Source: Afipia sp. Root123D2 (GTDB lineage Bacteria > Pseudomonadota > Alphaproteobacteria > Rhizobiales > Xanthobacteraceae). Taken from it: a stretch of 64,000 nucleotides of DNA. Of this stretch, positions 31,360 to 56,637 are shown one piece after another. The translations under genes and the position numbers were made by a program. Below the pieces are notes generated by a model. The model was not told the origin of the DNA, did not search any database, and saw nothing but the letters and a program-made list of their open reading frames with translations. How positions within the stretch are numbered: position 1 is the first letter of the stretch; each line of letters opens with the position of its first letter. The stretch is taken from assembly GCF_001425835.1 (NCBI RefSeq), contig NZ_LMDP01000001.1:435476-499475 (forward strand), in the 5' to 3' direction.

Positions 31360-31935
31360 CTAGTCACTGTTGACGCTTCTCTTGCTCAACGCTCGGCTAA
31401 TCTGCTCCAGCGCGTCGAGATCCGATGCTGCATTTTGGGGTGGCGGGATTGTTTTCGGCACCGCCGTCAACCTTGGCCGGTGCACCACGGGCGCCCTGCG
31501 AGGGACTGCCGGTTCATCTTCCAGGCGGATCGTTTTGATGGCTTCCAGGATTTGTTCGCGCGTAGGGCTGGCGGAAGCAAGAAGCCCTTTAAAATATATC
31601 AGCCAAAGATGCTCTTTCTTTGAGTCCTGAAGTATCGGAAATCGTGTGACGATGGTGTCGAAGGCAATGGTGCTGAAATTTTTAATCTGCTGATCGAGTG
31701 GCTCGTCTCGCTGCTTCTTCGTCAGCGCCGACCTGTGAAGCATCCAGATGATGGCGATTTCGGCCGTACTATCCTGAATCGAACCGGCCAGATCGCGCGG
31801 AGGCGGCGTCGCTGAGAGCGGCATCCGCTTCAAAGATGAGTTGGCGCCTCTCAATGCGGATACTGCCGCGTCCGGCTGTGCGTCGCGCTTGAACGCGTGA
31901 CTGCCGAGCTTGTAAGGCTGCTGCTCTCCGCTCAT
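31360..31935 (-). CDS. Hypothetical protein
   Basis: 191 residues from the ATG at 31935, which has GGAG 11 bases upstream; a GTG at 31956 is possible. The centre is helical and globular-looking (IAIIWMLHRSALTKKQRD; HLWLIYFKGLLASASPTREQIL) and the ends are low-complexity, Pro-rich. No signal peptide or known motif is seen. It lies on the same strand as the twin-arginine-like small gene, 104 bases downstream of it. Confidence 0.5.
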   Translation of the reverse strand: MSGEQQPYKLGSHAFKRDAQPDAAVSALRGANSSLKRMPLSATPPPRDLAGSIQDSTAEIAIIWMLHRSALTKKQRDEPLDQQIKNFSTIAFDTIVTRFPILQDSKKEHLWLIYFKGLLASASPTREQILEAIKTIRLEDEPAVPRRAPVVHRPRLTAVPKTIPPPQNAASDLDALEQISRALSKRSVNSD

Positions 31936-32039
31936 CGACGCTGCTACTCCGCACACCCTATTGAGACATCGACTGTGCGCCGCAGGCAGGATTCGCGCTG
32001 ACGAGTAAGGAACGCAACATGCTTCTCTCTGTCACGCCT

Positions 32040-32384
32040 TTACATGCGTCCGGTGTCTTGCCGTTTTACGAACTTGCGGCGCCGGTCGTTATCGAAGTCC
32101 CAATCCCAAAACGAACTGCGATTGCTGCGGATGCCGTTATTTTTGTGCCACTCACTGCTGCCGCCGCTGTTGTTGTTGCCGCGACCACGGCCCCGGCCAT
32201 GCCCGTTATTGCCCTGACCGCTGGAATGAGCGATCGCCGACGAAGTCAAGGAGGTCGACAGCAGCATCGTGATGGCGGGCGGCGTTACGAGGGCAAACTT
32301 CCCGCATGCGGCAAGAAATTTCCGCCGGTCTTCGTTCGCGTCGTCTGCGTTAGCGGAGGTGGATTTGTCGTTCTCTGGCGCCAT
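32040..32384 (-). CDS. Small Gly/Asn/Arg-rich protein with twin-arginine-like leader
   Basis: 114 residues with a very good ribosome site (AGGAGGAG) before the ATG. Arg20-Arg21 in EDRRKFLAACGKFA resemble a Tat signal, followed by a hydrophobic stretch (LVTPPAITMLLSTSLTSSA) and a possible cleavage after AIA. The rest is low complexity: SSGQGNNGHGRGRGRG, then NNNSGGSSEW and a charged tail (FDNDRRRKFVKRQ). It is divergent from the PqqD-kinase gene and shares an AT-rich promoter region with it, so the two may act together. Structural protein, export partner or peptide substrate are all possible; no function is proven. Confidence 0.75.
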   Translation of the reverse strand: MAPENDKSTSANADDANEDRRKFLAACGKFALVTPPAITMLLSTSLTSSAIAHSSGQGNNGHGRGRGRGNNNSGGSSEWHKNNGIRSNRSSFWDWDFDNDRRRKFVKRQDTGRM

Positions 32385-32411
32385 TGTCTCCTCCTACATT
32401 TCATACTTCCG

Positions 32412-32470
32412 AGTTTGATTTAATTAGCTTCATATTTAATTGTCAATGTTTCGATTATAAACATTAATGA
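32412..32470. promoter_or_regulatory. AT-rich divergent promoter region
   Basis: Contains GATTTAATTAG and ATATTTAATTGTC, two copies of the TTTAATT motif, in an otherwise GC-rich genome. It lies between the Tat-like small gene and the PqqD-kinase gene. Similar islands precede the other operons of this region. Confidence 0.55.
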
Positions 32471-32588
32471 ACGGAAATTCCCCGAGTTGTGTTTAGTATT
32501 CCTGTCGTGGAAACTGCCAGCTGGCGCCTGTTGCAGGCCTTGCAGCAAGTTCCAGTCATCTTGCGCATGCCAACGATGTCGCGGTCAC

Positions 32589-33758
32589 ATGAACCTAGAA
32601 GCATCAGCGGGTCGGCGATCGCCGAATTTGAGCGACAATCGGCCGTTCCGTGGCATTTTTAAACCGGCCAGCGGTGTATCTTTTTTGCTCCTCGACGGGC
32701 AGGGAGCGATTTTTTCGGAACGAAGCCAGCAGATTTACGCGCTGAATCAGACCGCGGCTTACATCTGGTGCCGTTTCGAGGAGCATGCGGACATCGATGC
32801 CTTATGCGGCGAACTGACGCGATCGGGAACCCCTCCGGGTGCGGCCAGGCAATACGTCCGTAAAATTTTCGAGAGCTGGCTGAAGCTGGGGCTGGTTGAA
32901 CCCAATCACACGTGGGCTTTCGATCACACGCGCTTCCCGCCGCAGCTTACATTCAATCTCGACATCGCGGGCTTTAATGCCGTCGTCCATAGCGCCAATG
33001 CCGGCCTGGTGGAATTGATGTCGGCGTTCGATCAGAACCGGGCGGCTGTCCGGGACGGTGCCGATACTTTCCATCTCGGAGAGGTCGAAGGCTTCGTCGA
33101 GGTGTTTCACAACGAGCGGCTGGTTATCTGCTGCGAGCCGAGCGAACTCGTTCCGTTGATCAAGGCCTATTTCACCGAGCAGATCCTCGCGGCACGGTCG
33201 CGAGACGTGGCGTTTCACGCTGCCAGCGTCGTGAGCAAGGGACGAAACCTGCTTATCAGCGGGCGTCCCGGCGCCGGCAAGACGACGCTTGCTCTTTGCC
33301 TGGCTGCCCGGCCTGGGTTCGATTGTGCCGGCGACGATATCGCTCTCATCGCCGAGAATGGTTGCGCCACCGCTGTGCCTTTCCCCTTCACCGTGAAAGC
33401 CGGTGCGTGGAATATCGCCAATCGTTTCCGTGCCGACCTGGACGGGGCGCGCATTCATAAGCGGGTCGACGGCAAGCGCGTACGTTATCTCAAGCCGGAG
33501 ACCGCCCTGGGTAACCCATATCCCGTGGGTTGGATCGTCTTCATCAGAAGGAAGAAAGGGCACGCAGCTCTTGAGCCGCTCCGGCCCTTGGAAGCCATGG
33601 GCCGGGTGATGGAAAGCTCCTACAGGGCGGGAGGACAGCTCGACATTGCGTCGTGCCACGCGATCAAGCGCATGCTCGAGGGTGCGAGATCCTTCGAGCT
33701 GAGATATTCGGATCTGGCCGAAGCGAGCGATCTGATGGTTCGTTTGTGCGATGAATAG
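32589..33758 (+). CDS. PqqD-like domain fused to HPr-kinase-like domain
   Basis: 389 residues from the ATG at 32589; an in-frame TTG at 32487 would add a Cys-rich stretch unlike the family. Residues about 18-105 form a PqqD/RRE-type winged-helix domain (LLDGQGAIFSERSQQIYALNQ; ESWLKLGLVEP), which in other systems holds a peptide leader. Residues about 200-385 are HprK-like: P-loop GRPGAGKTT at 225-233, His210 in FHAAS and the acidic pair Asp249-Asp250 in CAGDDIALI. HprK relatives phosphorylate serine; in lasso-peptide clusters such kinases modify the peptide. The stop overlaps the next gene by 8 bases, so the two work as a pair. Substrate unknown. Confidence 0.85.
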   Translation: MNLEASAGRRSPNLSDNRPFRGIFKPASGVSFLLLDGQGAIFSERSQQIYALNQTAAYIWCRFEEHADIDALCGELTRSGTPPGAARQYVRKIFESWLKLGLVEPNHTWAFDHTRFPPQLTFNLDIAGFNAVVHSANAGLVELMSAFDQNRAAVRDGADTFHLGEVEGFVEVFHNERLVICCEPSELVPLIKAYFTEQILAARSRDVAFHAASVVSKGRNLLISGRPGAGKTTLALCLAARPGFDCAGDDIALIAENGCATAVPFPFTVKAGAWNIANRFRADLDGARIHKRVDGKRVRYLKPETALGNPYPVGWIVFIRRKKGHAALEPLRPLEAMGRVMESSYRAGGQLDIASCHAIKRMLEGARSFELRYSDLAEASDLMVRLCDE

Positions 33759-34830
33759 CCGAGGCAGCGAACTATCGCAGCTATGTCAATGCCTTCGAAA
33801 TTTGCCGCCAGGTGATTTTGACTGGATGTCTGTGATCGGCCTGGCAAACCAGACCCTGACGACGCCAGCCTTGCAGCGTATCGTCAGCCGCTTCCCCGAC
33901 AAAGTCCCCGAAGATGTTGGGCAGTATGTGCTCGAGCTTTTTGCGCGAAATTCGGAGCGCAACGACAGGCTTGGTGCGCAGCTGATGGATGTTCTGGCTG
34001 CTCTCAACAAGGTCGATATCACGCCAATTCTTTTGAAAAGCACCGCGTTCCTGGCAGCACGACCGCCGGAGGAGATGGCCCACAGGATCGTCTCGGATCT
34101 GGATATTCTCGTTGCCCCCGAAGACATCGAAGCGGCGTTGGCCGGCCTGTCCGATATCGGCTACCAGACCTATCTCAGAACGTCCGATGACGCTGCCAAG
34201 TGGTATGTCGAACTCGAACGGCAGGGCGATGTCGGGATGATCGACCTGCACAAAAATCCTCCGGGGCACGCGTTCTTCTACACGGCCGCCGGTGAGGCAA
34301 AGGACAATTGCCGGAAGACGACGTGGCGGGGCGGGACCGCCTACATCCCGTCGGCGACCTATCACGCCTTCATGCTGATGATTCATGACCAGTTCCAGGA
34401 CGCCGATTACTGGATCGGCAGAATGGACCTGCGTCACCTTCTGGATTTGCACGATCTGGCAAATTCGCCGGAAGGTATCGACTGGACTTTGCTGGCATCG
34501 TTCTGTTCTGGCTCGCTCGCCAAAAACGCCATCGAAACCCAGCTCGTCACGCTGTCATCGTTGCTTGGGACGGATGTCCCCCCGGCCATGCGGTCGCGGC
34601 TGGTCCCGTGGCTGCAGAACTGGCGCCGCTTAACTCAGATCCGTTTTCCGGTCCTCAGCGATCTGTTCTTGACCATGATGCTTCTCGATTACCGGAATTA
34701 TCGTCGGGAGTTGGGGAGAGAGGAAAGGAAGGCGAATGACCTCAGGCCCCGGACCTGGGTCTTGCCCAAATGGAACACGGCGCGGTTCCTGTTCGATCTC
34801 TCTCGGGAGCACCGTGCCGGAAAGATCTAG
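33751..34830 (+). CDS. Nucleotidyltransferase-like protein (NTP_transf_5 type)
   Basis: 359 residues. An LLKSTAFL motif near 94 and the metal-binding pair Asp116/Asp118 in VSDLDILV match the minimal nucleotidyltransferase core. After it, HDQFQDADYWIGRMDLRHLLDLHDL (core RMDLRHLLDL) is the usual second motif. Proteins of this type occur beside PqqD/HprK-like genes in peptide and polysaccharide clusters. It is translationally coupled to the kinase fusion and likely acts on the same target. Nucleotide and acceptor are unknown. Confidence 0.82.
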   Translation: MNSRGSELSQLCQCLRNLPPGDFDWMSVIGLANQTLTTPALQRIVSRFPDKVPEDVGQYVLELFARNSERNDRLGAQLMDVLAALNKVDITPILLKSTAFLAARPPEEMAHRIVSDLDILVAPEDIEAALAGLSDIGYQTYLRTSDDAAKWYVELERQGDVGMIDLHKNPPGHAFFYTAAGEAKDNCRKTTWRGGTAYIPSATYHAFMLMIHDQFQDADYWIGRMDLRHLLDLHDLANSPEGIDWTLLASFCSGSLAKNAIETQLVTLSSLLGTDVPPAMRSRLVPWLQNWRRLTQIRFPVLSDLFLTMMLLDYRNYRRELGREERKANDLRPRTWVLPKWNTARFLFDLSREHRAGKI

Positions 34831-34972: not shown

Positions 34973-35329
34973 CTAGTCATTCCGCTTGCCGGAATGATTG
35001 ATTTTAAAGTCGTCGATCTTGCGTCCGGTCTTGAGTGCCACAACCAGCCACCGTGGAGTTTTACCGCGGCCCGACCAGGTTTCCGACGGTGACGAGGGGT
35101 TGCGGTATTTAGGCAGCACTCTCGGATACTTACGGCGGGGGCGACTCGCCGGATTAACCGCCGCATCCGATAAATTAGCACCGGAGATATTGTCCCTGTT
35201 GAGCTGAGCCAATCGTTTTTCCAGCTCGTGCTTTTCGGCGACTATCCTTTCAGCCAGAATCTTCGTGATCTCCTCGTGGAGGAGCCAAAGCTCGTCAAAT
35301 GGCATGTCGTTCAGATTTGGTTTTCGCAT
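34973..35329 (-). CDS. H-NS family nucleoid protein
   Basis: 118 residues. The N-terminal half is a coiled-coil dimerisation segment (LWLLHEEITKILAERIVAEK, ELEKRLAQLN). The C-terminal half has the H-NS DNA-binding signature: YRNPSSP, then SETWSGRGKTPRWL. Such proteins bind curved AT-rich DNA and silence acquired genes, often those for surface polysaccharide. It faces away from its paralogue at 36181. Confidence 0.9.
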   Translation of the reverse strand: MRKPNLNDMPFDELWLLHEEITKILAERIVAEKHELEKRLAQLNRDNISGANLSDAAVNPASRPRRKYPRVLPKYRNPSSPSETWSGRGKTPRWLVVALKTGRKIDDFKINHSGKRND

Positions 35330-36029: not shown

Positions 36030-36180
36030 CCATCGGGATGTCAGGACGTGGGTGATACACCGCGAACTCCCCGGTCGTGGCGCACGCCTGTCAAATCTGT
36101 TTTATCCCACCTGGCGTTGAAAAATTCCCGGGCATAGCCTAAACGTTGCGGTGGAAATTTGGAAATGCAGGTGCTTACTC

Positions 36181-36555
36181 ATGAAGAAAGCCGATCTGGA
36201 AACGATGTCATTGGATGACCTGTGGGTGCTCCACGAAACGGTCAGCAAAATATTGTCTTCACGGATCATTTCTGAAAAACGCGAGCTGGAAAAACGGCTC
36301 GCCTACCTGAACAAGTCTGATGGCTTGATTTCTCCCGCCGGCGACCTGTCTTCCCGGAAGGAAGAAGGAAGGACCCGGCGGAAATACCCCAGGGTTCTGC
36401 CGAAGTACCGAAACCCCGCGGTGCCGTCTGAAACGTGGTCCGGCAGAGGAAAGCAGCCGCGCTGGCTGGTTTCGGCGATAAGATCCGGCCGCAAGATTGA
36501 TGATTTCAAGATTGGCGCGCCCGCCACGGCAAAAAGCAAACGCCAGAAAAATTAA
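36181..36555 (+). CDS. H-NS family nucleoid protein, second copy
   Basis: 124 residues from the ATG at 36181 (MKKADLETMSLDDLWVLHET). It has the same layout as the copy at 34973: a coiled coil (KILSSRIISEKRELEKRLAYL), a basic linker (RRKYPRVLPK) and the DNA-binding signature YRNPAVP then SETWSGRGKQPRWL. The C-termini of both copies share GRKIDDFKI. The two are clearly paralogues. Likely target: the AT-rich promoters of this island (inference). Confidence 0.9.
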   Translation: MKKADLETMSLDDLWVLHETVSKILSSRIISEKRELEKRLAYLNKSDGLISPAGDLSSRKEEGRTRRKYPRVLPKYRNPAVPSETWSGRGKQPRWLVSAIRSGRKIDDFKIGAPATAKSKRQKN

Positions 36556-48496: not shown

Positions 48497-51400
48497 ATGA
48501 GCATTTCTGACGTCTATGGTGCAGAGTCGGGCTCATCGAGCGGCGGTTCCGAACTCGATGCGTGGGCCAATCAATGGCGCGGTGAGGCCTCAACCTCGGT
48601 TTGCGGCACCTGCGTTGGCGGGGCCTGCGGGATCTGTTCGATACGCACCGGTACTGCACCCAAGGCGGACGGTCAGCCGACCGGCTACGTTCCTCGCACC
48701 CTTCAACTCTACAATCCGGACGATGGCGCCCTGGCTGCCTTCGGCAGCCTGGGTATTTCGAGTCTTGCAGCGCCGACGCAAACCGCCACGCTCGATCAGT
48801 CTGCTACGGTCAATGCGCTTGCACCTGGCGTGATCGCCAACCCGATCGTTGCCGAAAACATGAAGCAGGGTTCGCCGGAGAGCGAATGGCTGATTGCTCA
48901 GGGCGATCCCAGCATTGAAGGCTATGCCGCTCAATTCACCATCAATCACGGGCAGCAGGTCGATTTCAAGATCGACACGGATTCGACCAACTACCGCATC
49001 GATATCTACCGGATCGGTTATTACGGCGGTGATGGCGCCCGCAAGGTCGCGACGATCAATCAGAATCTTGCGACCGCGCAGGTTCAGCCGCTTCCGATCT
49101 TCGATCCCGTGAGAAAGCTGGTGGATGCCGGAAACTGGAACGTGTCGGCGTCATGGGACATCCCCGCCGACGCCGTGTCCGGCGTTTATTTCGCCAAGCT
49201 GACGCGCCTTGATGGCAGCGGCGGCGAGAACATGATTCCGTTTATCGTGCGGGATGATGAAACCCCGAGCGACATCACTTTCCAGACGTCGGATACGACG
49301 TGGCAGGCCTACAACTGGTGGGGCGGCTACAATTTTTATGGCGGCGTCGATCAGGGTGGACGGGCCGGGCGGGCTTCCGCCGTCAGCTATAACCGTCCGA
49401 TCATTACCCGCGATGGCGGCTTTGCAGCGGGACCGCAGGACTTCATCTTCGGGGTGGAATACCCCGCAATCCGCTGGCTCGAACAGAACGGTTATGACGT
49501 CAATTACATTTCGGGCATCGATACGGCGAGTACTGGCGCGCAACTGCTCAACAGCAAGGTGTTTCTTTCCGTCGGCCACGATGAATACTGGTCAGCGGAT
49601 CAGCGTGACAATGTCGAAGCGGCGCGGGACGCCGGCGTCAATCTCGCATTTCTGAGCGGGAACGAGGTCTATTGGCAGACACGCTGGGAATCGAGCATCG
49701 ACGGCAGCGGAACGCCGTACAAGACGCTCGTGTCCTATAAAGAAGTCTGGTCGAACGACAACGTCGACGTTAACGGCACTACATCGACATGGCGCGATCC
49801 GGAATTCGGTGCGGGTGAGCCGGAGAATGCGCTGACCGGCACGATGTTCACGGTCGACTCCTACCGGCTCGATACCATTACGATTCCGTACGATCTCTCC
49901 AACTTCCGGTTCTGGAGCAACACGGCGGTCGACGACATACAGCCCGGCCAGGTGTATTCGCTGGTGCCGAATCTGCTGGGTTATGAGTGGGATTCGGATG
50001 TCGACAACGGCTTCCGCCCCGATGGCCTTATTGCGCTCTCTTCGACGACTGTCGATGTCAACACACTGCTGCTGGATTACGGCAGCACGACCGGTCCGGG
50101 GACTGCGTCGCACAGTTTGACGTTGTATCGTGCGCCCAGCGGCGCCTTGGTATTTGGCGCCGGAACGGTCTACTGGGCGTGGGGTCTTGATGACCATCAC
50201 GACAACGAGGCGACGCCCACCGATCCGAACGTGCAGCAGGCGATGGTGAACCTGTTTGCCGATATGGGTATTCAGCCCCAAACGCTGATGGCGAGTCTGG
50301 CGGTTGCCGCGCAAACCACCGACCATGCGGCGCCGACCTCGACGATCGCGCCGCCAAACCCCGGCGATACTTTCATAACAAATGATCCGATCACGATCAC
50401 GGGTACCGCGGTCGATACCGGAGGAGGATCGGTCGCGGTTGTTGAAGTCTCGACCGATGGCGGAGCGACCTGGCATCGCGCGACCGGCTTTCAAAACTGG
50501 ACATATACTTTCACGCCGCTCGTCGGCGGCGACTATACGATCAAGTCGCGTGCCGTGGATGACAGCGTCAACCTGGAAACGCCGGGTGCCGGCAGGGTCT
50601 TTACTGTCGCGCCGCCGACAACGGTGACGCTGTTCTCACCCTTCGCCGTTCCATCAAATCCCGCTGATGCCGATACTGGAACCGTCAATCTGGGCGTCAA
50701 GTTCTCGGCCTCGCAGGCCGGCACCATTGTGGGTCTGAAATTCTACAAGGGGGTCGGTGACATCGGCACCCATGTCGGCTCGCTGTGGTCCGCCACGGGT
50801 ACGTTACTGACGAGTGCAACATTCACGGGAGAAACCAGCAGCGGCTGGCAAACCGTCATGTTCGGGACGCCGATTTCGATTTCAGCCGGCATGACGTTCG
50901 TCGCCAGCTATCAAAGCTTCGGACACTACGCGAACACGCCTGACTATTTCACGGCGACATATACCAACGGTCCGCTCTCCGCCCAGGCCGGGAATGGATA
51001 CTACACCTACAGCAGCGATACCGTGTTTCCCACCACGTCATCGAACGGGACGAATTACTGGGTCGACGTTGTTTTCAATCCGGGCACGTTCGTTAACGAA
51101 CCGCCGGTCGGGACCAACGACAACGGATATTCGGTCGAGCGCGATACGCCGATCACCTTCAACGCGGCGGTTCTTCTCGCCAACGACACCGATCCGAATG
51201 GCGACGTGCTGTCTATCACCGGCATTGGTGCTGCGTCGGGCGGGACGGTCAGCTTCAACAGCCAGACCAACATCATCACGTTCACCCCGAATGCGGGCTA
51301 CACCGGCCCCGCGACGTTCGGTTACGCGATTTCCGACGGCCGTGGCGGAGTCGGCTCCGCAATGGTCAATCTTACGGTGGTGCCGCCGTCGACCAGCGTC

Positions 51401-52663
51401 AGCCTGTTCTCGGCTTCGGATACTCCGGCCGTGCTCGGGGATTCGGATACGAACCAGGTCAATCTCGGCGTCCGGTTCGTCTCATCGGCGCCAGGCGTCA
51501 TTAGCGGAATCCGATATTACAAGGGCGCCGGCGATACCGGCACCCATACCGGTTCGCTGTGGACCAGCGGTGGTCAGTTGCTTGCCAGCGCGACGTTCAC
51601 CAACGAGACCTCGAGCGGCTGGCAGCAGGTCACTTTCGCATCGCCGGTCACGATCACGGCGAACACGACGTATGTCGCGAGCTATCACAGCAACGGCCAA
51701 TACACCGCGACGGGTGGCTATTTTGGAACGGCGCATACCAACGGCCCGCTGACGGCAGTAGCCGGAACCAACGGTGTGTATGCCTATGGCACCGGAAACC
51801 TGTTCCCGACCAATTCATACGGCTCAACCAACTACTGGGTCGACGTAGTGTTCGACGCGTCCGGTGCGCCGGTGAACGCGTCGCCGGTGGCTGTGAACGA
51901 CAACGGGTTTGTCGGATCGCGGAATACGGCGTTGACGCTGTCGGCTGCGAGTTTGCTGGCCAATGACAGCGACCCGGACGGCGACACGTTGACGATCACC
52001 GGCGCAAGCGGTGGCGTGAACGGCAGCGTGAGTTTCGACAGTCAGACCAACACAATCACCTTCAATCCGACCGCCGGATATACCGGTGCTGCGTCCTTCA
52101 GTTATGCGATCTCCGATGGTCAAGGCGGTACGGCGTCTGCCAATGTTGCCATGACGATCGAGGACACAACGATCGTCGGACTGTTCGGCCCCGATTTCGT
52201 GCCGAACATGGTGAGCGTGCCGGACTATGCATCCGTCGAGCTTGGGATGAAGTTCCAAGCGTCGGCGAGCGGTGAAATCGTTGGCCTGGAGTTCTACAAG
52301 AGCGCGGACAACACCGGCCCGCATGTCGCCAATGTATGGTCCGTAAGCGGCAATCTGCTTGCGACGGCGACTTTCACCAACGAAAGCGCCAGCGGCTGGC
52401 AGCAGGTGAACTTCTCGACGCCGATCGCGATTACGGCCGGCACCACCTACGTGGCGTCGTATCACACCAATGGCAGCTACTCGGCGGATCCCAACTACTT
52501 TGCGACCTCGCATACCGAGGGGCCTCTGACAGCGCCGTCGTCTGCGAGCAGCGGTGGCAATGGTCTCTATGCTTATGGCGGTTCGAGTCTCTTCCCGACC
52601 AACACCTATAACGCGAGCAGCTATGGTGTTGACGTGCTCTTCAGAGCGCAACTGGCTGCCTAG
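48497..52663 (+). CDS. Giant multidomain protein: dimethylformamidase-like domain plus three DUF4082 domains
   Basis: 1388 residues without an N-terminal signal peptide. A CxxC-x4-CxxC cluster (Cys36, 39, 44, 47) stands near the start. Residues about 125-595 resemble the N,N-dimethylformamidase large-subunit C-terminal domain (SVGHDEYWSADQR, FLSGNEVYWQTRWE, YWAWGLDDHHDN). An Ig-like domain lies at about 610-705. Three DUF4082 repeats (708-862, 966-1121, 1225-1384) alternate with two cadherin/tandem-95-like domains (869-962, 1130-1222, with LLANDTDPNGD and LLANDSDPDGD Ca-binding-type loops). The type I exporter genes directly downstream make it the likely secreted cargo. Probable adhesin or surface-matrix protein; enzyme activity unproven. 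Confidence 0.88.
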   Translation: MSISDVYGAESGSSSGGSELDAWANQWRGEASTSVCGTCVGGACGICSIRTGTAPKADGQPTGYVPRTLQLYNPDDGALAAFGSLGISSLAAPTQTATLDQSATVNALAPGVIANPIVAENMKQGSPESEWLIAQGDPSIEGYAAQFTINHGQQVDFKIDTDSTNYRIDIYRIGYYGGDGARKVATINQNLATAQVQPLPIFDPVRKLVDAGNWNVSASWDIPADAVSGVYFAKLTRLDGSGGENMIPFIVRDDETPSDITFQTSDTTWQAYNWWGGYNFYGGVDQGGRAGRASAVSYNRPIITRDGGFAAGPQDFIFGVEYPAIRWLEQNGYDVNYISGIDTASTGAQLLNSKVFLSVGHDEYWSADQRDNVEAARDAGVNLAFLSGNEVYWQTRWESSIDGSGTPYKTLVSYKEVWSNDNVDVNGTTSTWRDPEFGAGEPENALTGTMFTVDSYRLDTITIPYDLSNFRFWSNTAVDDIQPGQVYSLVPNLLGYEWDSDVDNGFRPDGLIALSSTTVDVNTLLLDYGSTTGPGTASHSLTLYRAPSGALVFGAGTVYWAWGLDDHHDNEATPTDPNVQQAMVNLFADMGIQPQTLMASLAVAAQTTDHAAPTSTIAPPNPGDTFITNDPITITGTAVDTGGGSVAVVEVSTDGGATWHRATGFQNWTYTFTPLVGGDYTIKSRAVDDSVNLETPGAGRVFTVAPPTTVTLFSPFAVPSNPADADTGTVNLGVKFSASQAGTIVGLKFYKGVGDIGTHVGSLWSATGTLLTSATFTGETSSGWQTVMFGTPISISAGMTFVASYQSFGHYANTPDYFTATYTNGPLSAQAGNGYYTYSSDTVFPTTSSNGTNYWVDVVFNPGTFVNEPPVGTNDNGYSVERDTPITFNAAVLLANDTDPNGDVLSITGIGAASGGTVSFNSQTNIITFTPNAGYTGPATFGYAISDGRGGVGSAMVNLTVVPPSTSVSLFSASDTPAVLGDSDTNQVNLGVRFVSSAPGVISGIRYYKGAGDTGTHTGSLWTSGGQLLASATFTNETSSGWQQVTFASPVTITANTTYVASYHSNGQYTATGGYFGTAHTNGPLTAVAGTNGVYAYGTGNLFPTNSYGSTNYWVDVVFDASGAPVNASPVAVNDNGFVGSRNTALTLSAASLLANDSDPDGDTLTITGASGGVNGSVSFDSQTNTITFNPTAGYTGAASFSYAISDGQGGTASANVAMTIEDTTIVGLFGPDFVPNMVSVPDYASVELGMKFQASASGEIVGLEFYKSADNTGPHVANVWSVSGNLLATATFTNESASGWQQVNFSTPIAITAGTTYVASYHTNGSYSADPNYFATSHTEGPLTAPSSASSGGNGLYAYGGSSLFPTNTYNASSYGVDVLFRAQLAA

Positions 52664-52674
52664 GACCATTGATC

Positions 52675-53013
52675 ATGCAGGAAGAGCTCTATACCGACGG
52701 CATCTCCGAGATCATGGTCAGCGGCACGATCGTGCGCGTCGATCTGATGAGCCTGTCGCCGACGGAACGGGACGCCAGCAATTTTCCGAAGAAGGTGTTC
52801 CGCCAGCGGCTCATCTTCTCGGCCGAGGCGTTCGCGAACTCCGTCGAAGTGATGCAGAACGCGCTTCAGGGACTGGTGGATGCCGGCGTGATCAAACGCA
52901 CTCCATCGCGGGAAACTCCTGAACATACCAGTGCCAATCCGGGCAGTGAGCGCTCCGGCTCGCCGGCTCCAAGTTTCCAACGGCCGCCAAATGTCTCAAC
53001 CAATTTCCGTTGA
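52675..53013 (+). CDS. Small protein between giant protein and type I exporter
   Basis: 112 residues from the ATG at 52675 (AGGA 9 bases upstream). The core, SEIMVSGTIVRVDLMSLSPT to RLIFSAEAFANSVEVMQNAL, looks like a compact alpha/beta fold with one long helix. The tail is Pro/Ser-rich. It lies 11 bases after the giant gene and its end overlaps the ABC gene by 23 bases, so it is an operon member. Export chaperone or regulator is possible; function unknown. Confidence 0.7.
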   Translation: MQEELYTDGISEIMVSGTIVRVDLMSLSPTERDASNFPKKVFRQRLIFSAEAFANSVEVMQNALQGLVDAGVIKRTPSRETPEHTSANPGSERSGSPAPSFQRPPNVSTNFR

Positions 53014-55213
53014 TGCGGAGGGTCGCCTGAACGGCCCGGATGTTGCGGCTGTCGATCCTTCCGAGCCATCACATCAGCAGTTGCGCACGGCGCTCGAGTC
53101 TCTGGTCAATGTCGCGAGATATCATGGCATCGACCTTTCGGTCGACCGGCTGCGTCACACCTACGCGTTGGGCGATCTGCCGATCCCGGAAATCCAGCTG
53201 TTGCGGATCGCCAAGGATTCCGGGTTTCGCGCCCGCCGCGTCCAGCTGACGTGGGAATCCCTGCTTCGATTGCGCGAGTCTTATCCTGCGCTCGTCAAGC
53301 TCGCCAACTGCAACTGGGTTGTCGCGATCGGCTGCACGACCGACGGGGAAGGGGAAGCGATCCGCGTCTTCGATCCGCTTTCGGTGCGGCCGGAACCGCT
53401 GGATGTATCGAAGGACAGCTTCTGCCCGAATTGGCGGGGCGACGTCATCTTGCTGAAGCCGAACCGCAAGCATTCCGCGGCGCATCGGCCTTTCGGTTTC
53501 CGCTGGTTTATCCCCGAACTGATCCGCGAACGGCGGTTGTTCCGGGATGTCGCGGTCGCCGCGGTGCTTCTTTATGGCCTTGGCCTGATCACGCCGATCT
53601 TCTTCCAGCTGGTGATCGACAAGGTCCTGGTGCATGAGAGCATCACGACGCTTTATGTTCTGGCTGCGGGTGCGATCGTCGCGTTGGTGTTCGATTCGAT
53701 CTTCAGCTTCCTGCGGCGCTATCTGTTGCTGTATGCGACCAACAAGATCGATATCCGCGTCGCAACCAAAACCTTCGGCCATCTGCTCGGCTTGCCGATC
53801 CAGTTCTTTGAGCACATCTCGGCGGGCGTGCTCGTCAAGCATATGCAGCAGGCGACGCGCGTCCGGGAGTTTCTCACCGGCCGTTTGTTCCTGACGGCGC
53901 TCGACGCGCTGTCGCTGTTCGTCTTCCTTCCCGTTCTGGCGCTTTACAGCCTCAAGCTGACCGGAATAGTGCTGGCATTCACGGCTCTCAGCGGGATCGT
54001 GGTCGCCCTGCTGGTCGGACCGTTCCGGCGCCGGTTGTTCAACCTCTATCAGGCCGAGGGCGAGCGGCAGGCGATGCTGGTGGAAACCGTCCACGGCATG
54101 CGAACGGTCAAGGCGCTTGCGATGGAGCCGCTGCAGCGCCGGGCGTGGGACGATCGCTGTGCCCAGTCGGTCTCGATGCGGTTCGATGTCGAGAAGATAT
54201 CGGCCAGCGCCCAGTCCGTGACCGGGTTGCTCGAAAAATTGATGTCGCTGGGGATTATCGGTTTCGGTGCTCTCGATGTTTTCAGCGGCGCGATGACCAT
54301 CGGCTCGCTGGTCGCGTTCAACATGCTGGCCGGCCGCGTCTCAGGGCCTCTCGTTCAAATGGTCACCATGGTCCACGAGTATCAGGAAGTGGCCCTGGCG
54401 GTGCAGATGCTGGGCGAGGTCATGAACCAGCAGGAGGAGCGTGCGGGAAAGCGGGACGGGATCCGGCCGGAATTCAACGGTCAGATTGAGTTCGAGAATG
54501 TTTCGTTCCGCTATGGTGCGGACGGTGCCCCGGCGCTGGATGACATTTCATTCACGATACCCGCCGGAACCGTGTTCGGCATTGTCGGCAGGAGTGGCTC
54601 TGGCAAGACCACGCTGACGCGGCTCATTTCCGGGCTGTATCCGATCCAGCAAGGTCTGCTTCGGATCGATGGTTTCGATGCACGCGAAATCGATCTGGTT
54701 CATCTGCGCACCAATCTCGGGCTCGTGCTGCAGGAGAACTTCCTGTTCCGCGGAACCGTTCGCGAAAACATCGCGTGCGTCAAACGCGATGCAACGTTTG
54801 AGGAGGTCGCCCAGGCCGCGCGCCTCGCCGGTGCGGATGAGTTCATCGAACGCCTGCCGCGTGGCTTCGACACCATGCTCGAGGAAAATGCGGAAAACCT
54901 TTCGGGTGGCCAGAAACAGCGCCTCGCCATTGCGAGGGCACTGATCACCAATCCTCGCATCCTGATCCTTGACGAAGCGACGAGTGCTTTGGATTCGGAG
55001 AGCGAATTGATCATCCGCCGGAACATCAGGCGTATCGCGGAAGGCCGCACTGTCATTATCGTCTCTCACCGGCTTTCGATGCTGGCGGATGCCGACGCGA
55101 TTCTGGTGATCGATCGGGGCCGGATCGTCGATGTCGATCGTCATGACAGGCTGCTGACGCAGTGCACGACCTATCGGCAGCTCTGGAATCAGCAGACGAA
55201 GCAGATCGCATGA
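52991..55213 (+). CDS. Type I secretion ABC transporter (HlyB type) with inactive C39-like domain
   Basis: 740 residues from the ATG at 52991. Residues about 20-145 are a C39-like domain; the peptidase Cys is missing (the region reads LVNVARYHGIDLSVDRL), so it should dock cargo and not cut it, as in HlyB. The membrane part spans about 175-450, with six segments. The ATPase has Walker A GRSGSGKTT near 534, signature LSGGQKQRLAIARAL near 637, Walker B ILILDEATSALD and the switch His in IIVSHRLS. It should export an uncleaved protein, most likely the giant neighbour. Confidence 0.93.
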   Translation: MSQPISVDAEGRLNGPDVAAVDPSEPSHQQLRTALESLVNVARYHGIDLSVDRLRHTYALGDLPIPEIQLLRIAKDSGFRARRVQLTWESLLRLRESYPALVKLANCNWVVAIGCTTDGEGEAIRVFDPLSVRPEPLDVSKDSFCPNWRGDVILLKPNRKHSAAHRPFGFRWFIPELIRERRLFRDVAVAAVLLYGLGLITPIFFQLVIDKVLVHESITTLYVLAAGAIVALVFDSIFSFLRRYLLLYATNKIDIRVATKTFGHLLGLPIQFFEHISAGVLVKHMQQATRVREFLTGRLFLTALDALSLFVFLPVLALYSLKLTGIVLAFTALSGIVVALLVGPFRRRLFNLYQAEGERQAMLVETVHGMRTVKALAMEPLQRRAWDDRCAQSVSMRFDVEKISASAQSVTGLLEKLMSLGIIGFGALDVFSGAMTIGSLVAFNMLAGRVSGPLVQMVTMVHEYQEVALAVQMLGEVMNQQEERAGKRDGIRPEFNGQIEFENVSFRYGADGAPALDDISFTIPAGTVFGIVGRSGSGKTTLTRLISGLYPIQQGLLRIDGFDAREIDLVHLRTNLGLVLQENFLFRGTVRENIACVKRDATFEEVAQAARLAGADEFIERLPRGFDTMLEENAENLSGGQKQRLAIARALITNPRILILDEATSALDSESELIIRRNIRRIAEGRTVIIVSHRLSMLADADAILVIDRGRIVDVDRHDRLLTQCTTYRQLWNQQTKQIA

Positions 55214-56637
55214 CCGGCTTGAACCAAAAACCGTCCGACGGCACTGCGAGGCGCATGATCGGCCTCCGGAAGGATAGGCGGCCTCGTCCTCCGAGGACCA
55301 CCGAGCCGGTGCGGCAGCGGTTGATATCGGAGTTTCAACCGGATGCGATCGAGGTCGAGGAAAGCACGCCTCCGCGTGTCGCGCGGATCACGCTCTATAC
55401 CGTGGTGGCGTTGATCGCCGCGGCCATCACCTGGGCGTCATTGTCCCAGGTCGATACCATCGTTGCCGCTCAGGGCAAGCTGATCTCGACCAGCCCCAAC
55501 ATTGTGGTGCAGCCGCTCGAGACGTCGGTCGTCAGGAAAATCCATGTCAAGGCCGGGGATGTCGTCGGACGCGGACAGGCGCTGGCGACGCTGGACCCCA
55601 CATTCTCGCAGGCGGACGTCGACCAGTTGCGGACCCGGCTCACTGCTCTCGACGCCAATATCCATCGGCTTCAAGCCGAACTGAACAATCAGAAATTCAT
55701 CGGGGTGGACCCGGGCAATCAGGATCAGGTCCTGCAGGCGAAGCTGTTTGCCGAGCGCAAGGCGTTCTATGAAACGTCGTTGCGGAACTACGATGCGCAG
55801 ATTGCCAGTGCGCAAGCCAATCTGAAGACCAGTCAGAGCGAGGAAGTCACGCTGCAACAGCGGCTCGAAACGCTGCGGTCGATCGAGACCATGCGAGAGA
55901 CGCTGATGGACAAGGCAGTCGGTTCAAAATTGAATTATCTGCTGTCGCGCGATGCTCGCCTTGATGTCGATGGCAATCTCGCTCGCTTGCGCGGCAATCA
56001 GGTCGACTACACGCACCGTATTGAGCGATCGCGGGCGGAGCAGCAGACATTCATCGAGGATTTCCGCCGGACCGCTTATCAGGATCTGGTTGACGCGATT
56101 GCCAAACGCAACAGCGCGGTGGAAGACCTGAAGAAGGCCGAGTTGCGGCAGCAATTGATTGTTCTGAAAGCGCCTGTGGATTCAATAGTACTCGAGATCG
56201 CGAGCCGCACGGTGGGCTCGGTGGTACGCGAGGCTGAAACGCTGTTTGTCCTGGTACCGCGCAACGAGAAGCTTCAGGCGGAAGTGAATGTCGAAGGGAA
56301 GGATATTGGGCAGGTTGCTGTCGGCCAGTCCGTGCGGCTGAAGTTCGACGCCTTTCCATTCCAGAAATATGGCACCGGGCACGGCACCGTTCGTGTCGTG
56401 AGCAGGGACTCGTTCGCGCCGGACACCAAGAACGACGCAACGCGCCATATGTCGTCGCCTTATTATCGCATCCTGATCGACGTCGATGAGGCGCGGCTGC
56501 GATCCCAGCCGGCGGATTTCCAGATGATTCCGGGAATGGCGGTGACGGCCGAGATGAAAGTTGGGCACCGGAGTGTGATGTCTTACTTCCTCTACCCGCT
56601 GATCCGCGGACTGGATGAAAGCATACGCGAACCCTAG
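55210..56637 (+). CDS. Type I secretion membrane-fusion (HlyD-family) adaptor
   Basis: 475 residues. A short cytoplasmic start, one membrane helix near 58-78 (ITLYTVVALIAAAITWASL), a lipoyl-like half (SPNIVVQPLETSVVRKIHVK and GQALATLDPTFSQADV), a long coiled coil (190-330), then the second lipoyl half and a C-terminal beta barrel ending ILIDVDEARLRSQPADFQMI and IPGMAVTAEMKVG. It bridges the ABC protein to an outer-membrane TolC-type channel, which is not encoded in this window. The ATG overlaps the ABC gene stop. Confidence 0.94.
   Translation: MTGLNQKPSDGTARRMIGLRKDRRPRPPRTTEPVRQRLISEFQPDAIEVEESTPPRVARITLYTVVALIAAAITWASLSQVDTIVAAQGKLISTSPNIVVQPLETSVVRKIHVKAGDVVGRGQALATLDPTFSQADVDQLRTRLTALDANIHRLQAELNNQKFIGVDPGNQDQVLQAKLFAERKAFYETSLRNYDAQIASAQANLKTSQSEEVTLQQRLETLRSIETMRETLMDKAVGSKLNYLLSRDARLDVDGNLARLRGNQVDYTHRIERSRAEQQTFIEDFRRTAYQDLVDAIAKRNSAVEDLKKAELRQQLIVLKAPVDSIVLEIASRTVGSVVREAETLFVLVPRNEKLQAEVNVEGKDIGQVAVGQSVRLKFDAFPFQKYGTGHGTVRVVSRDSFAPDTKNDATRHMSSPYYRILIDVDEARLRSQPADFQMIPGMAVTAEMKVGHRSVMSYFLYPLIRGLDESIREP

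What the first reader, a model, noticed from the sequence alone, without database searches (positions are those of the whole stretch)
32040..34830. PqqD-HPr-kinase fusion with coupled nucleotidyltransferase facing a Tat-like low-complexity small protein
Seen: one protein joins a peptide-binding PqqD/RRE-type domain to an HprK-like P-loop kinase. It overlaps an NTP_transf_5 gene and is divergent from a 114-residue RR-leader protein rich in Gly, Asn, Arg and Ser. Known: HprK-like kinases (ThcoK, PadeK) phosphorylate lasso-peptide serines, and pseudomycoidin adds a nucleotidyltransferase (PsmN) to that step. No lasso cyclase or leader protease is here. Inference: an uncharacterised peptide or protein Ser-modification system tied to the polysaccharide island, with the small protein as a candidate target.
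Basis: partly seen in the sequence, partly recalled or inferred. Interest (0 to 1): 0.72.

Follow-up and report, generated by a model that had tools for sequence, protein, structure and literature searches.

The report
Leader-guided kinase for exported peptides
Many soil and plant-associated bacteria appear to carry a paired kinase and transferase that recognise a shared start signal on a set of small exported peptides and modify a serine near the start of the mature peptide; this looks like a variant of the recently described linear phosphopeptide pathways, and it has not been tested in the laboratory.

Summary
A PqqD/RRE-HprK-like kinase fusion (32589-33758 +) overlaps an NTP_transf_5 gene (33751-34830 +) and faces a 114-aa Tat-like small protein (32040-32384 -). 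The small gene sits beside the kinase in 14 of 18 full-length-kinase loci of its family. All 18 genomes carry proteins with its leader (E<1e-15), against 1 of the other 278. A wider leader scan kept loci from 55 organisms; 54 have the kinase. The 18 family genomes have one kinase each and one to six leader genes. The leader RRxFLxxCG[KR]FAxVTPP...AxA is nearly invariant; the remainder is variable and often Gly-rich. The most conserved residue after the predicted cut is a Ser (124 of 130 leaders). Best reading: the leader docks in the RRE, the fused kinase phosphorylates that Ser, the NTase caps the phosphate, then Tat exports the peptide. Nearest precedent: Bacillota 'linear polyphosphorylated peptides' (May 2026), differing in the fusion, the lack of a dedicated peptidase, the Tat-like leader and dispersed substrates. 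New variant of a known kind. Chemistry and role are inferred.

The parts
32040..32384 (-). precursor: 114-aa small protein with Tat-like leader and Gly/Asn/Arg/Ser-rich C-terminal part
   Evidence: ORF; AGGAGGAG before the ATG; leader conserved in 130 distinct proteins
32229..32384 (-). leader, residues 1-52 (RRKFL at 20-24, CGKFA, VTPP, hydrophobic stretch, A50-I-A52 cleavage-like site)
   Evidence: alignments A1, A2 and position counts
32223..32225 (-). candidate modified serine, Ser54 (position 35 counted from the first Arg of RR; two residues after AxA)
   Evidence: Ser in 124 of 130 distinct leaders; 74 of 74 among leaders found by a pattern that does not cover this position; modification itself not shown
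32589..33758 (+). PqqD/RRE-HprK-like kinase fusion; alternative start TTG 32487
32658..32903 (+). RRE (PqqD/lasso-B1-like) domain of the fusion
   Evidence: model residues about 25-106; Foldseek 6jx3_B TMt 0.90, rmsd 1.3; TbiB1 E 9.2e-6 by profile
32910..33755 (+). PEPCK/HprK-like kinase domain; His 33216-33218, Walker A 33258-33287, Asp-Asp 33333-33338
33751..34830 (+). NTP_transf_5 nucleotidyltransferase-like gene; Asp-x-Asp at 34096-34104

Best explanation
This is a leader-guided serine-modification system for a set of small exported peptides. The conserved N-terminal leader of the precursor is bound by the RRE (PqqD) domain. The kinase domain fused to it phosphorylates the conserved Ser two residues after the AxA site. 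The overlapping NTP_transf_5 enzyme then transfers a nucleotidyl, sugar or sugar-phosphate group onto that phosphate. The same leader carries a twin-arginine signal, so the modified peptide is exported by Tat after cytoplasmic modification and cut after AxA, releasing a short, often Gly-rich peptide with a modified Ser at position 2. One kinase-NTase pair serves several unlinked precursor genes. Shown here: the genes, their predicted folds and conserved active-site residues, leader conservation, co-occurrence and adjacency. Inferred: leader binding, phosphorylation, the site, the NTase product, Tat export and the order of steps.
For: Adjacency: small gene divergent and next to the kinase in 14 of 18 full-length loci, NTase directly downstream in 18 of 18, in pieces in one. 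Co-occurrence in 296 family genomes: kinase (E<1e-40) in 18, leader profile (E<1e-15) in 19, both in 18; NTase (E<1e-50) in the same 18 (Fisher p 7e-28, not corrected for relatedness). The four kinase genomes without an adjacent precursor carry precursors elsewhere. Leader scan of named genomes: of 55 organisms with kept loci, 40 have the kinase pair in the same locus and 14 of the other 15 elsewhere. The five full-length kinase genomes of a 259-genome phylum sample all have the leader. Four gene orders in 61 loci, 7 of them fetched twice. Leader far more conserved than the mature part; Ser35 in 124 of 130. Fold: RRE like TfuB1 bound to a lasso leader, kinase like HprK/PEPCK. The leader has L-x3-G-x5-T at the spacing of the lasso leader motif, and the TfuA leader shares L-x3-G-x-F-x3-T. 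Precedents: BsfK phosphorylates Ser3 of its precursor but not the core alone, helped by RRE BsfB1 (PMC10368454, passages); LppK polyphosphorylates core Ser3 near a signal-peptidase-type cut (PMC13381572); PsmN installs hexose on phospho-Ser (PMC9266682, passage).
Against: No biochemistry. G409 (100% complete) and G417 carry the leader without a full-length kinase, as do G244 (77% complete) and Mesorhizobium WSM3862. The leader lacks the [Y/W]xxP motif that known lasso and LPP RREs bind (PMC13381572). LppN had no detectable activity in its heterologous host, so the NTase step is the weakest. Leader conservation could partly reflect Tat or membrane constraints. The kinase matches HprK only weakly by sequence.
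Confidence: 0.65

Rival explanations
1. The RRE-kinase is an export chaperone or quality-control ATPase for these Tat signal peptides. It binds the leader and uses ATP to delay or license export, without a stable modification of the peptide.
For: The conserved block coincides with a Tat-like signal: an uncharged stretch of at least 13 residues after RR in 130 of 130 rows that were anchored on R[RE]xFL. Leader, not core, is the conserved part. RRE-type domains bind leaders.
Against: The overlapping NTase is kept in 18 of 18 family loci and has a conserved Asp-x-Asp, which a chaperone would not need. A Ser beyond the cleavage-like site is conserved. HprK-like relatives that work with RREs are peptide kinases (PMC10368454, PMC13381572).
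Confidence: 0.12
2. The kinase pair acts on another protein, for example a polysaccharide or PTS regulator, and the small protein is only a co-regulated neighbour.
For: In this family 15 of 18 loci lie by exopolysaccharide or rhamnose genes.
Against: Unlinked precursors elsewhere in the genome still track the kinase. Adjacency occurs in four gene orders and in an S. meliloti and an M. amorphae locus where none of the 10 neighbour ORFs searched is a recognised polysaccharide gene. No HPr/PTS family match above cut-off.
Confidence: 0.08
3. It is a remnant or variant lasso-peptide pathway whose protease and cyclase are encoded elsewhere.
For: RRE fold like lasso B1; L-x3-G-x5-T spacing of the lasso leader; kinase and NTase are known lasso tailoring enzymes.
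Against: Lasso leader-peptidase family PF13471 in 1 of 18 kinase genomes, 1.7 Mb from the kinase. Mature parts lack a regular ring-acceptor position (by eye). The Y and P of the lasso leader are missing. The cyclase was not searched for.
Confidence: 0.05
4. The same system, but the modified residue is another Ser/Thr of the precursor (leader S/T cluster or C-terminal residues).
For: Positions 25, 26 and 29 of the leader are T 115, S 111 and S 115 of 130; paeninodin-type kinases act on a C-terminal Ser (PMC9266682).
Against: Those positions vary more than Ser35 and lie in the predicted signal; C-termini vary in length and residue.
Confidence: 0.1

Closest known systems
Linear polyphosphorylated peptides (LPP; LppA/B/K/N/S/D) of Bacillota, PMC13381572 (May 2026; abstract and sections 6, 7, 8, 12 read)
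   Same: RRE, HprK-like kinase and NTP transferase; precursors with conserved leader and variable C-terminus; [quoted passage not shown] often in polysaccharide loci
   Different: Here RRE and kinase are one protein; the leader has RRxFL..CGKFA..TPP and no YxxP; no archaeal-type SpI over cut-off in any of 18 genomes; precursors are dispersed; alphaproteobacteria, whereas the paper calls LPP restricted to Bacillota
Phosphorylated lasso peptides (paeninodin, Bsf, pseudomycoidin)
   Same: RRE-assisted HprK-like Ser kinase; NTase that follows the kinase in pseudomycoidin; leader L-x3-G-x5-T spacing
   Different: No leader-peptidase family in 17 of 18 genomes; mature part not lasso-like by eye; leader is a Tat-like signal
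HPr-rel-A system (NCBIfam TIGR04352 kinase, TIGR04353 PqqD)
   Same: HprK-related kinase with PqqD partner (from the family names)
   Different: Scores 61.7 against cut-off 200 and 20.9 against 35; modelled there as two proteins, here one
PEP-CTERM/exosortase (PMC1569441, abstract and outline seen)
   Same: One machinery, many signal-bearing proteins of low similarity, linked to exopolysaccharide, found by phylogenetic profiling
   Different: C-terminal signal and a membrane protein proposed as transpeptidase there; N-terminal leader and a soluble-looking kinase here; an analogy only

Membership tests
LPP (Bacillota linear polyphosphorylated peptides) | HprK-like kinase plus NTP transferase | tested here: met
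LPP (Bacillota linear polyphosphorylated peptides) | discrete RRE protein | tested here: not met
   RRE and kinase parts lie in one ORF in all 22 aligned homologues; window protein modelled
LPP (Bacillota linear polyphosphorylated peptides) | archaeal-type SpI leader peptidase (LppS) | tested here: not met
   TIGR02228 over cut-off in 0 of 18 kinase genomes, 4 weak sub-cut-off matches; over cut-off in 4 of 14 control genomes
LPP (Bacillota linear polyphosphorylated peptides) | YxxPxVL leader motif | tested here: not met
   leader consensus is RRxFL..G.FA..TPP
LPP (Bacillota linear polyphosphorylated peptides) | conserved leader, variable core, Ser near core N-terminus | tested here: met
LPP (Bacillota linear polyphosphorylated peptides) | multiple phosphates on that Ser | not testable with these tools
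   needs mass spectrometry
LPP (Bacillota linear polyphosphorylated peptides) | MsbA-like exporter in the cluster | tested here: inconclusive
   An ABC/HlyD pair lies about 18 kb away in the window; related pairs only in some loci; no dedicated search
Lasso peptide pathway | B2 leader peptidase (PF13471) | tested here: not met
   1 of 18 genomes, far from the kinase
Lasso peptide pathway | macrolactam cyclase (C protein) | not tested
   no search was made
Lasso peptide pathway | YxxPxLxxxGxxxxxT leader | tested here: not met
   L, G and T spacing present, Y and P absent
HPr-rel-A system | TIGR04352/TIGR04353 above curated cut-off | tested here: not met
   61.7 of 200 and 20.9 of 35 bits
HPr kinase/phosphorylase of the PTS | Hpr_kinase_C domain above cut-off | tested here: not met
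   11.6 of 33.3 bits; the fold and the His, Walker A and Asp-Asp residues are HprK-like
Tat substrate | twin Arg, F-L, uncharged stretch, AxA (consensus recalled) | tested here: met
   RR-F-L was also used as anchor, so those letters are partly selected; export itself not testable

The most novel reading that the evidence does not exclude
An N-terminal address-and-label system: one RRE-kinase plus one transferase marks every protein carrying the leader, wherever it is encoded, with a phosphate-linked group on Ser +2 before Tat export, so that a set of small surface peptides is displayed or coupled to extracellular polymer through that group. It would be the N-terminal, cytoplasmic counterpart of PEP-CTERM/exosortase sorting.
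Probability: 0.25. Interest if true: 0.85.

Novelty: new variant of a known kind. Interest (0 to 1): 0.73.

Why it matters
A precursor family with no Pfam or NCBIfam model above cut-off among the members searched, a kinase fusion and a transferase turn out to be tightly linked across Bradyrhizobium, Sinorhizobium, Mesorhizobium, Tardiphaga, Rhodopseudomonas and other alphaproteobacteria, including a Sinorhizobium meliloti strain. The linkage names the substrates and one residue to test. It extends a phosphopeptide pathway kind, described in 2026 as restricted to Bacillota, to another phylum, with a kinase fused to its leader reader and a leader that is also an export signal. It also gives a direct route to the open question of what NTases of the PsmN/LppN sort do.

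Tried and rejected
Rejected: lasso pathway (PF13471 in 1 of 18); canonical HPr kinase; HPr-rel-A member; phage or defence protein (for the kinase PHROGs and PADLOC give only weak P-loop-region matches, E 6e-4 and 5e-6; nothing for the other two); dedicated archaeal-type SpI.

A genome-contig scan with the kinase alignment was not accepted for lack of conserved stretches. A solved-structure search with the leader profile gave only chance-level matches, best PvdN at E 0.23. A phylum-wide kinase profile search (259 genomes) gave 65 genomes at E<=1e-15. Only 5 matches reach into the PqqD part at E<1e-80 (G000, G024, G105, G122, G850), all of the same order as the window; the rest start at profile position 68 or later, most at 110 or later.

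Results against: leader without full-length kinase in G409, G417, G244 and Mesorhizobium WSM3862, and weak leader-like genes without kinase in G589. Kinase fusions without a leader-profile hit at E<1e-6 in the class sample, G608 and G528, have more divergent RR-x-FL small genes beside the kinase (G608 at a contig end). One class genome with a stronger kinase-part-only match (G302, E 4.8e-31) was not counted as a fusion. Family leader search: 30 of 296 genomes at E<=0.01; beyond the 19 strong ones, three (G097, G146, G226) have a distant leader beside a distant kinase and eight are weak, E 5e-4 to 9e-3. The polysaccharide link was not seen in the S. meliloti and M. amorphae loci inspected (10 neighbour ORFs).

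Bias told: profile hits gave 130 rows; dropped were 16 duplicates, 5 that start after model position 11 and 2 without an R[RE]xFL anchor, so R, F and L counts are selected. For the 74 rows brought the pattern fixes positions 8-16; Ser35 lies outside it. One search kept the best 80 of 193 relatives (78 loci), so its organisms are those closest to the query; the 55 organisms were counted by hand from its titles. Family, class and phylum samples are drawn from larger groups, and genomes are related.
Full report
What is there. The window holds a kinase gene at 32589-33758 (+; an upstream TTG at 32487 is possible), an NTP_transf_5 gene at 33751-34830 (+) that overlaps its end, and a small gene at 32040-32384 (-) that faces them. 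The small gene has AGGAGGAG before its ATG. Pfam finds PqqD (30.1 bits, cut-off 23.4) and NTP_transf_5 (84.9, cut-off 31.2). NCBIfam finds only sub-threshold HprK_rel_A (61.7 of 200) and PqqD_rel_X (20.9 of 35). No family is matched above cut-off by the small protein; TIGR04117, a radical-SAM target family, is a weak lead (E 0.018; 12 of 35 leaders at E up to 0.1).

Conservation beside the kinase. Of 296 genomes of the family, 18 have a full-length kinase (E<1e-40), one each. I took 14-20 kb around 17 of them plus the window. The NTase follows in 18 of 18, in pieces in L045. The small gene lies divergent and directly beside in 14 of 18; L039, L042, L043 and L044 lack it there. With loci from other families and from the named-genome scan, four gene orders occur: upstream divergent 28, downstream same strand 24, upstream same strand 5, downstream opposite 4. 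In 60 of the 61 the nearest leader ORF is within 1.3 kb of the kinase ORF, in one 1.6 kb; 7 of the 61 are second copies of a locus already fetched (duplicates judged from contig lengths).

The leader travels with the kinase even when unlinked. The leader profile A1 hits 19 of 296 family genomes at E<1e-15, and these include all 18 kinase genomes; the other is G244, 77% complete. The NTase at E<1e-50 is in the same 18. Fisher p is 7e-28, without correction for relatedness. The four kinase genomes without an adjacent precursor have precursors elsewhere; seven of the 18 genomes have three to six leader genes at E<1e-6. In 385 class genomes, 10 have a kinase fusion (RRE and kinase parts, one of them, G664, in two pieces on two contigs) and 10 a leader at E<1e-6; 8 have both (p 2e-13). 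The two fusion-only genomes, G608 and G528, have divergent RR-x-FL genes beside the kinase; the two leader-only genomes are G409 and G417. In a 259-genome phylum sample the only 5 full-length fusions (E<1e-80) are in the window's order, and all 5 genomes have the leader. A scan of the 84,980-species collection with the leader gave 193 relatives, of which 78 loci from 55 organisms were kept. Forty loci, one per organism, hold the kinase pair. Of the 15 other organisms, 14 have a full-length kinase elsewhere at E<=1.3e-86; Mesorhizobium WSM3862 does not (best 3.4e-15, kinase part only). Thirteen genomes searched hold one to eight leader genes each at E<=1e-6; S. meliloti 4H41 has six.

Anatomy of the precursors. 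Among 130 distinct leaders, numbered from the first Arg, positions read G9 127, F11 126, A12 127, T15 129, P16 128, P17 126, L23 129, A31 123, A33 120, S35 124, G36 114, G37 95; position 34 is free. For 74 found by a pattern covering only positions 8-16, A31, A33 and S35 are 74 of 74; for the 56 found by profile, S35 is 50 of 56. After position 37 conservation collapses. Mature parts have a median of 34 residues and 29% Gly. By simple text patterns 40 of 130 carry an NNGxGN core (as in GNNGWGNGGGDGSPNGKDD), 16 a C-terminal helix-like WLERLLxKxF, and 74 neither, among them His-rich and PGNGWGDKNHIHVGPP types. In the window the Ser is Ser54, codon 32223-32225. This is the architecture of a leader-guided peptide: conserved leader, a conserved Ser-Gly just after the cut, variable remainder.

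How it most likely works. The RRE binds the leader, the fused kinase phosphorylates Ser +2, the NTase adds a group to the phosphate, Tat exports, and a housekeeping signal peptidase cuts after AxA. Precedents: in Bsf lasso peptides the kinase acts on Ser3 of the precursor, not on the core alone, and RRE BsfB1 speeds it (PMC10368454, passages). In LPP the kinase LppK polyphosphorylates core Ser3 near an SpI-type cut (PMC13381572, sections 6, 7, 8, 12). In pseudomycoidin PsmN, annotated as nucleotidyltransferase, installs hexoses on phospho-Ser, or a host enzyme does so after nucleotidylation (PMC9266682, passage). LppN showed no activity in its host, so the NTase product here is open. The leader lacks the YxxP that known RREs bind but keeps L-x3-G-x5-T at the lasso spacing YxxPxLxxxGxxxxxTx (PMC6856326, one passage), and TfuA shares L-x3-G-x-F-x3-T. 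That is suggestive of descent from a lasso-like RRE pathway; it was not tested statistically.

Context. In the window the neighbours include a bacterial sugar transferase, polysaccharide export and chain-length proteins and four genes with dTDP-rhamnose-pathway domains. Homologues of one or more of these lie near the kinase in 14 of the 17 other family loci, so 15 of 18 in all. In S. meliloti 4H41 the five neighbour ORFs searched are histidinol dehydrogenase, a low-molecular-weight phosphatase, IF-1, DUF930 and a tRNA-editing domain; in M. amorphae a pyruvate-kinase/ATP-sulfurylase ORF, an APS kinase, an exchanger and two large cadherin-domain proteins. The polysaccharide link is thus common here but not defining.

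Is it known? It is not a lasso pathway (leader-peptidase family in 1 of 18). It fails LPP membership on three tested features: discrete RRE, archaeal-type SpI (0 of 18 over cut-off) and YxxP leader; it works like LPP. PMC13381572 states that LPP and paeninodins are restricted to Bacillota. Ten searches of the held open library, read as listings, showed no paper describing an alphaproteobacterial fused RRE-HprK with this leader family; most subscription papers and preprints are outside that library. Verdict: new variant of a known kind, with a clear and cheap decisive test.

Noticed in passing
48497-52663 (+): 1388-aa protein with DMFA2_C, three DUF4082 stretches and cadherin/Big domains and a Cys-rich N-terminus (CGTCVGGACGIC); homologues lie near the kinase in L041, L044, L045 and L046.
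   Followed up: partly
52931-56637 (+): ABC exporter with a weak C39-like N-terminal domain plus HlyD partner next to the 1388-aa protein; related ABC/HlyD genes lie near the kinase in L033 and L047 and an ABC exporter near a leader gene in L098.
   Followed up: partly
34973-35329 (-) and 36151-36555 (+): Two H-NS-like genes between the NTase and the polysaccharide genes; two such ORFs recur in 12 of the 17 loci L031-L047.
   Followed up: no
31360-31956 (-): 198-aa protein of no Pfam family, conserved near the system in 7 of the 17 loci L031-L047.
   Followed up: no
L048, L049, L050: Distant kinase loci whose leader proteins carry Thr-rich repeats after the leader.
   Followed up: no
L152: Tandem small leader-like proteins with Cys-rich ends (CEPCSTCTPCD) in G374; their weaker leader lacks the Ser after the cut.
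   Followed up: no
L090, L094, L104, L111, L112, L113: Related regulator-like ORFs next to dispersed leader genes; the one checked, beside the second leader gene of the window's own genome (L094), is a LuxR-type response regulator.
   Followed up: partly
L045/L244 and L238: NTase gene in overlapping pieces in different frames beside an intact kinase ORF: frameshift, sequencing error or decay; left as found.
   Followed up: no
L092, L093, L096, L098, L111: Degenerate leader genes lacking the RR start or in pieces.
   Followed up: no
L202 (G388): A separate PqqD-like ORF directly before a kinase-only ORF and an NTP_transf_5-like match: the unfused arrangement in the same class.
   Followed up: no
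32910-33180, model residues 109-200 of the kinase: The stretch between RRE and P-loop part is included in the alignment to PEP carboxykinase (model range 109-390).
   Followed up: no
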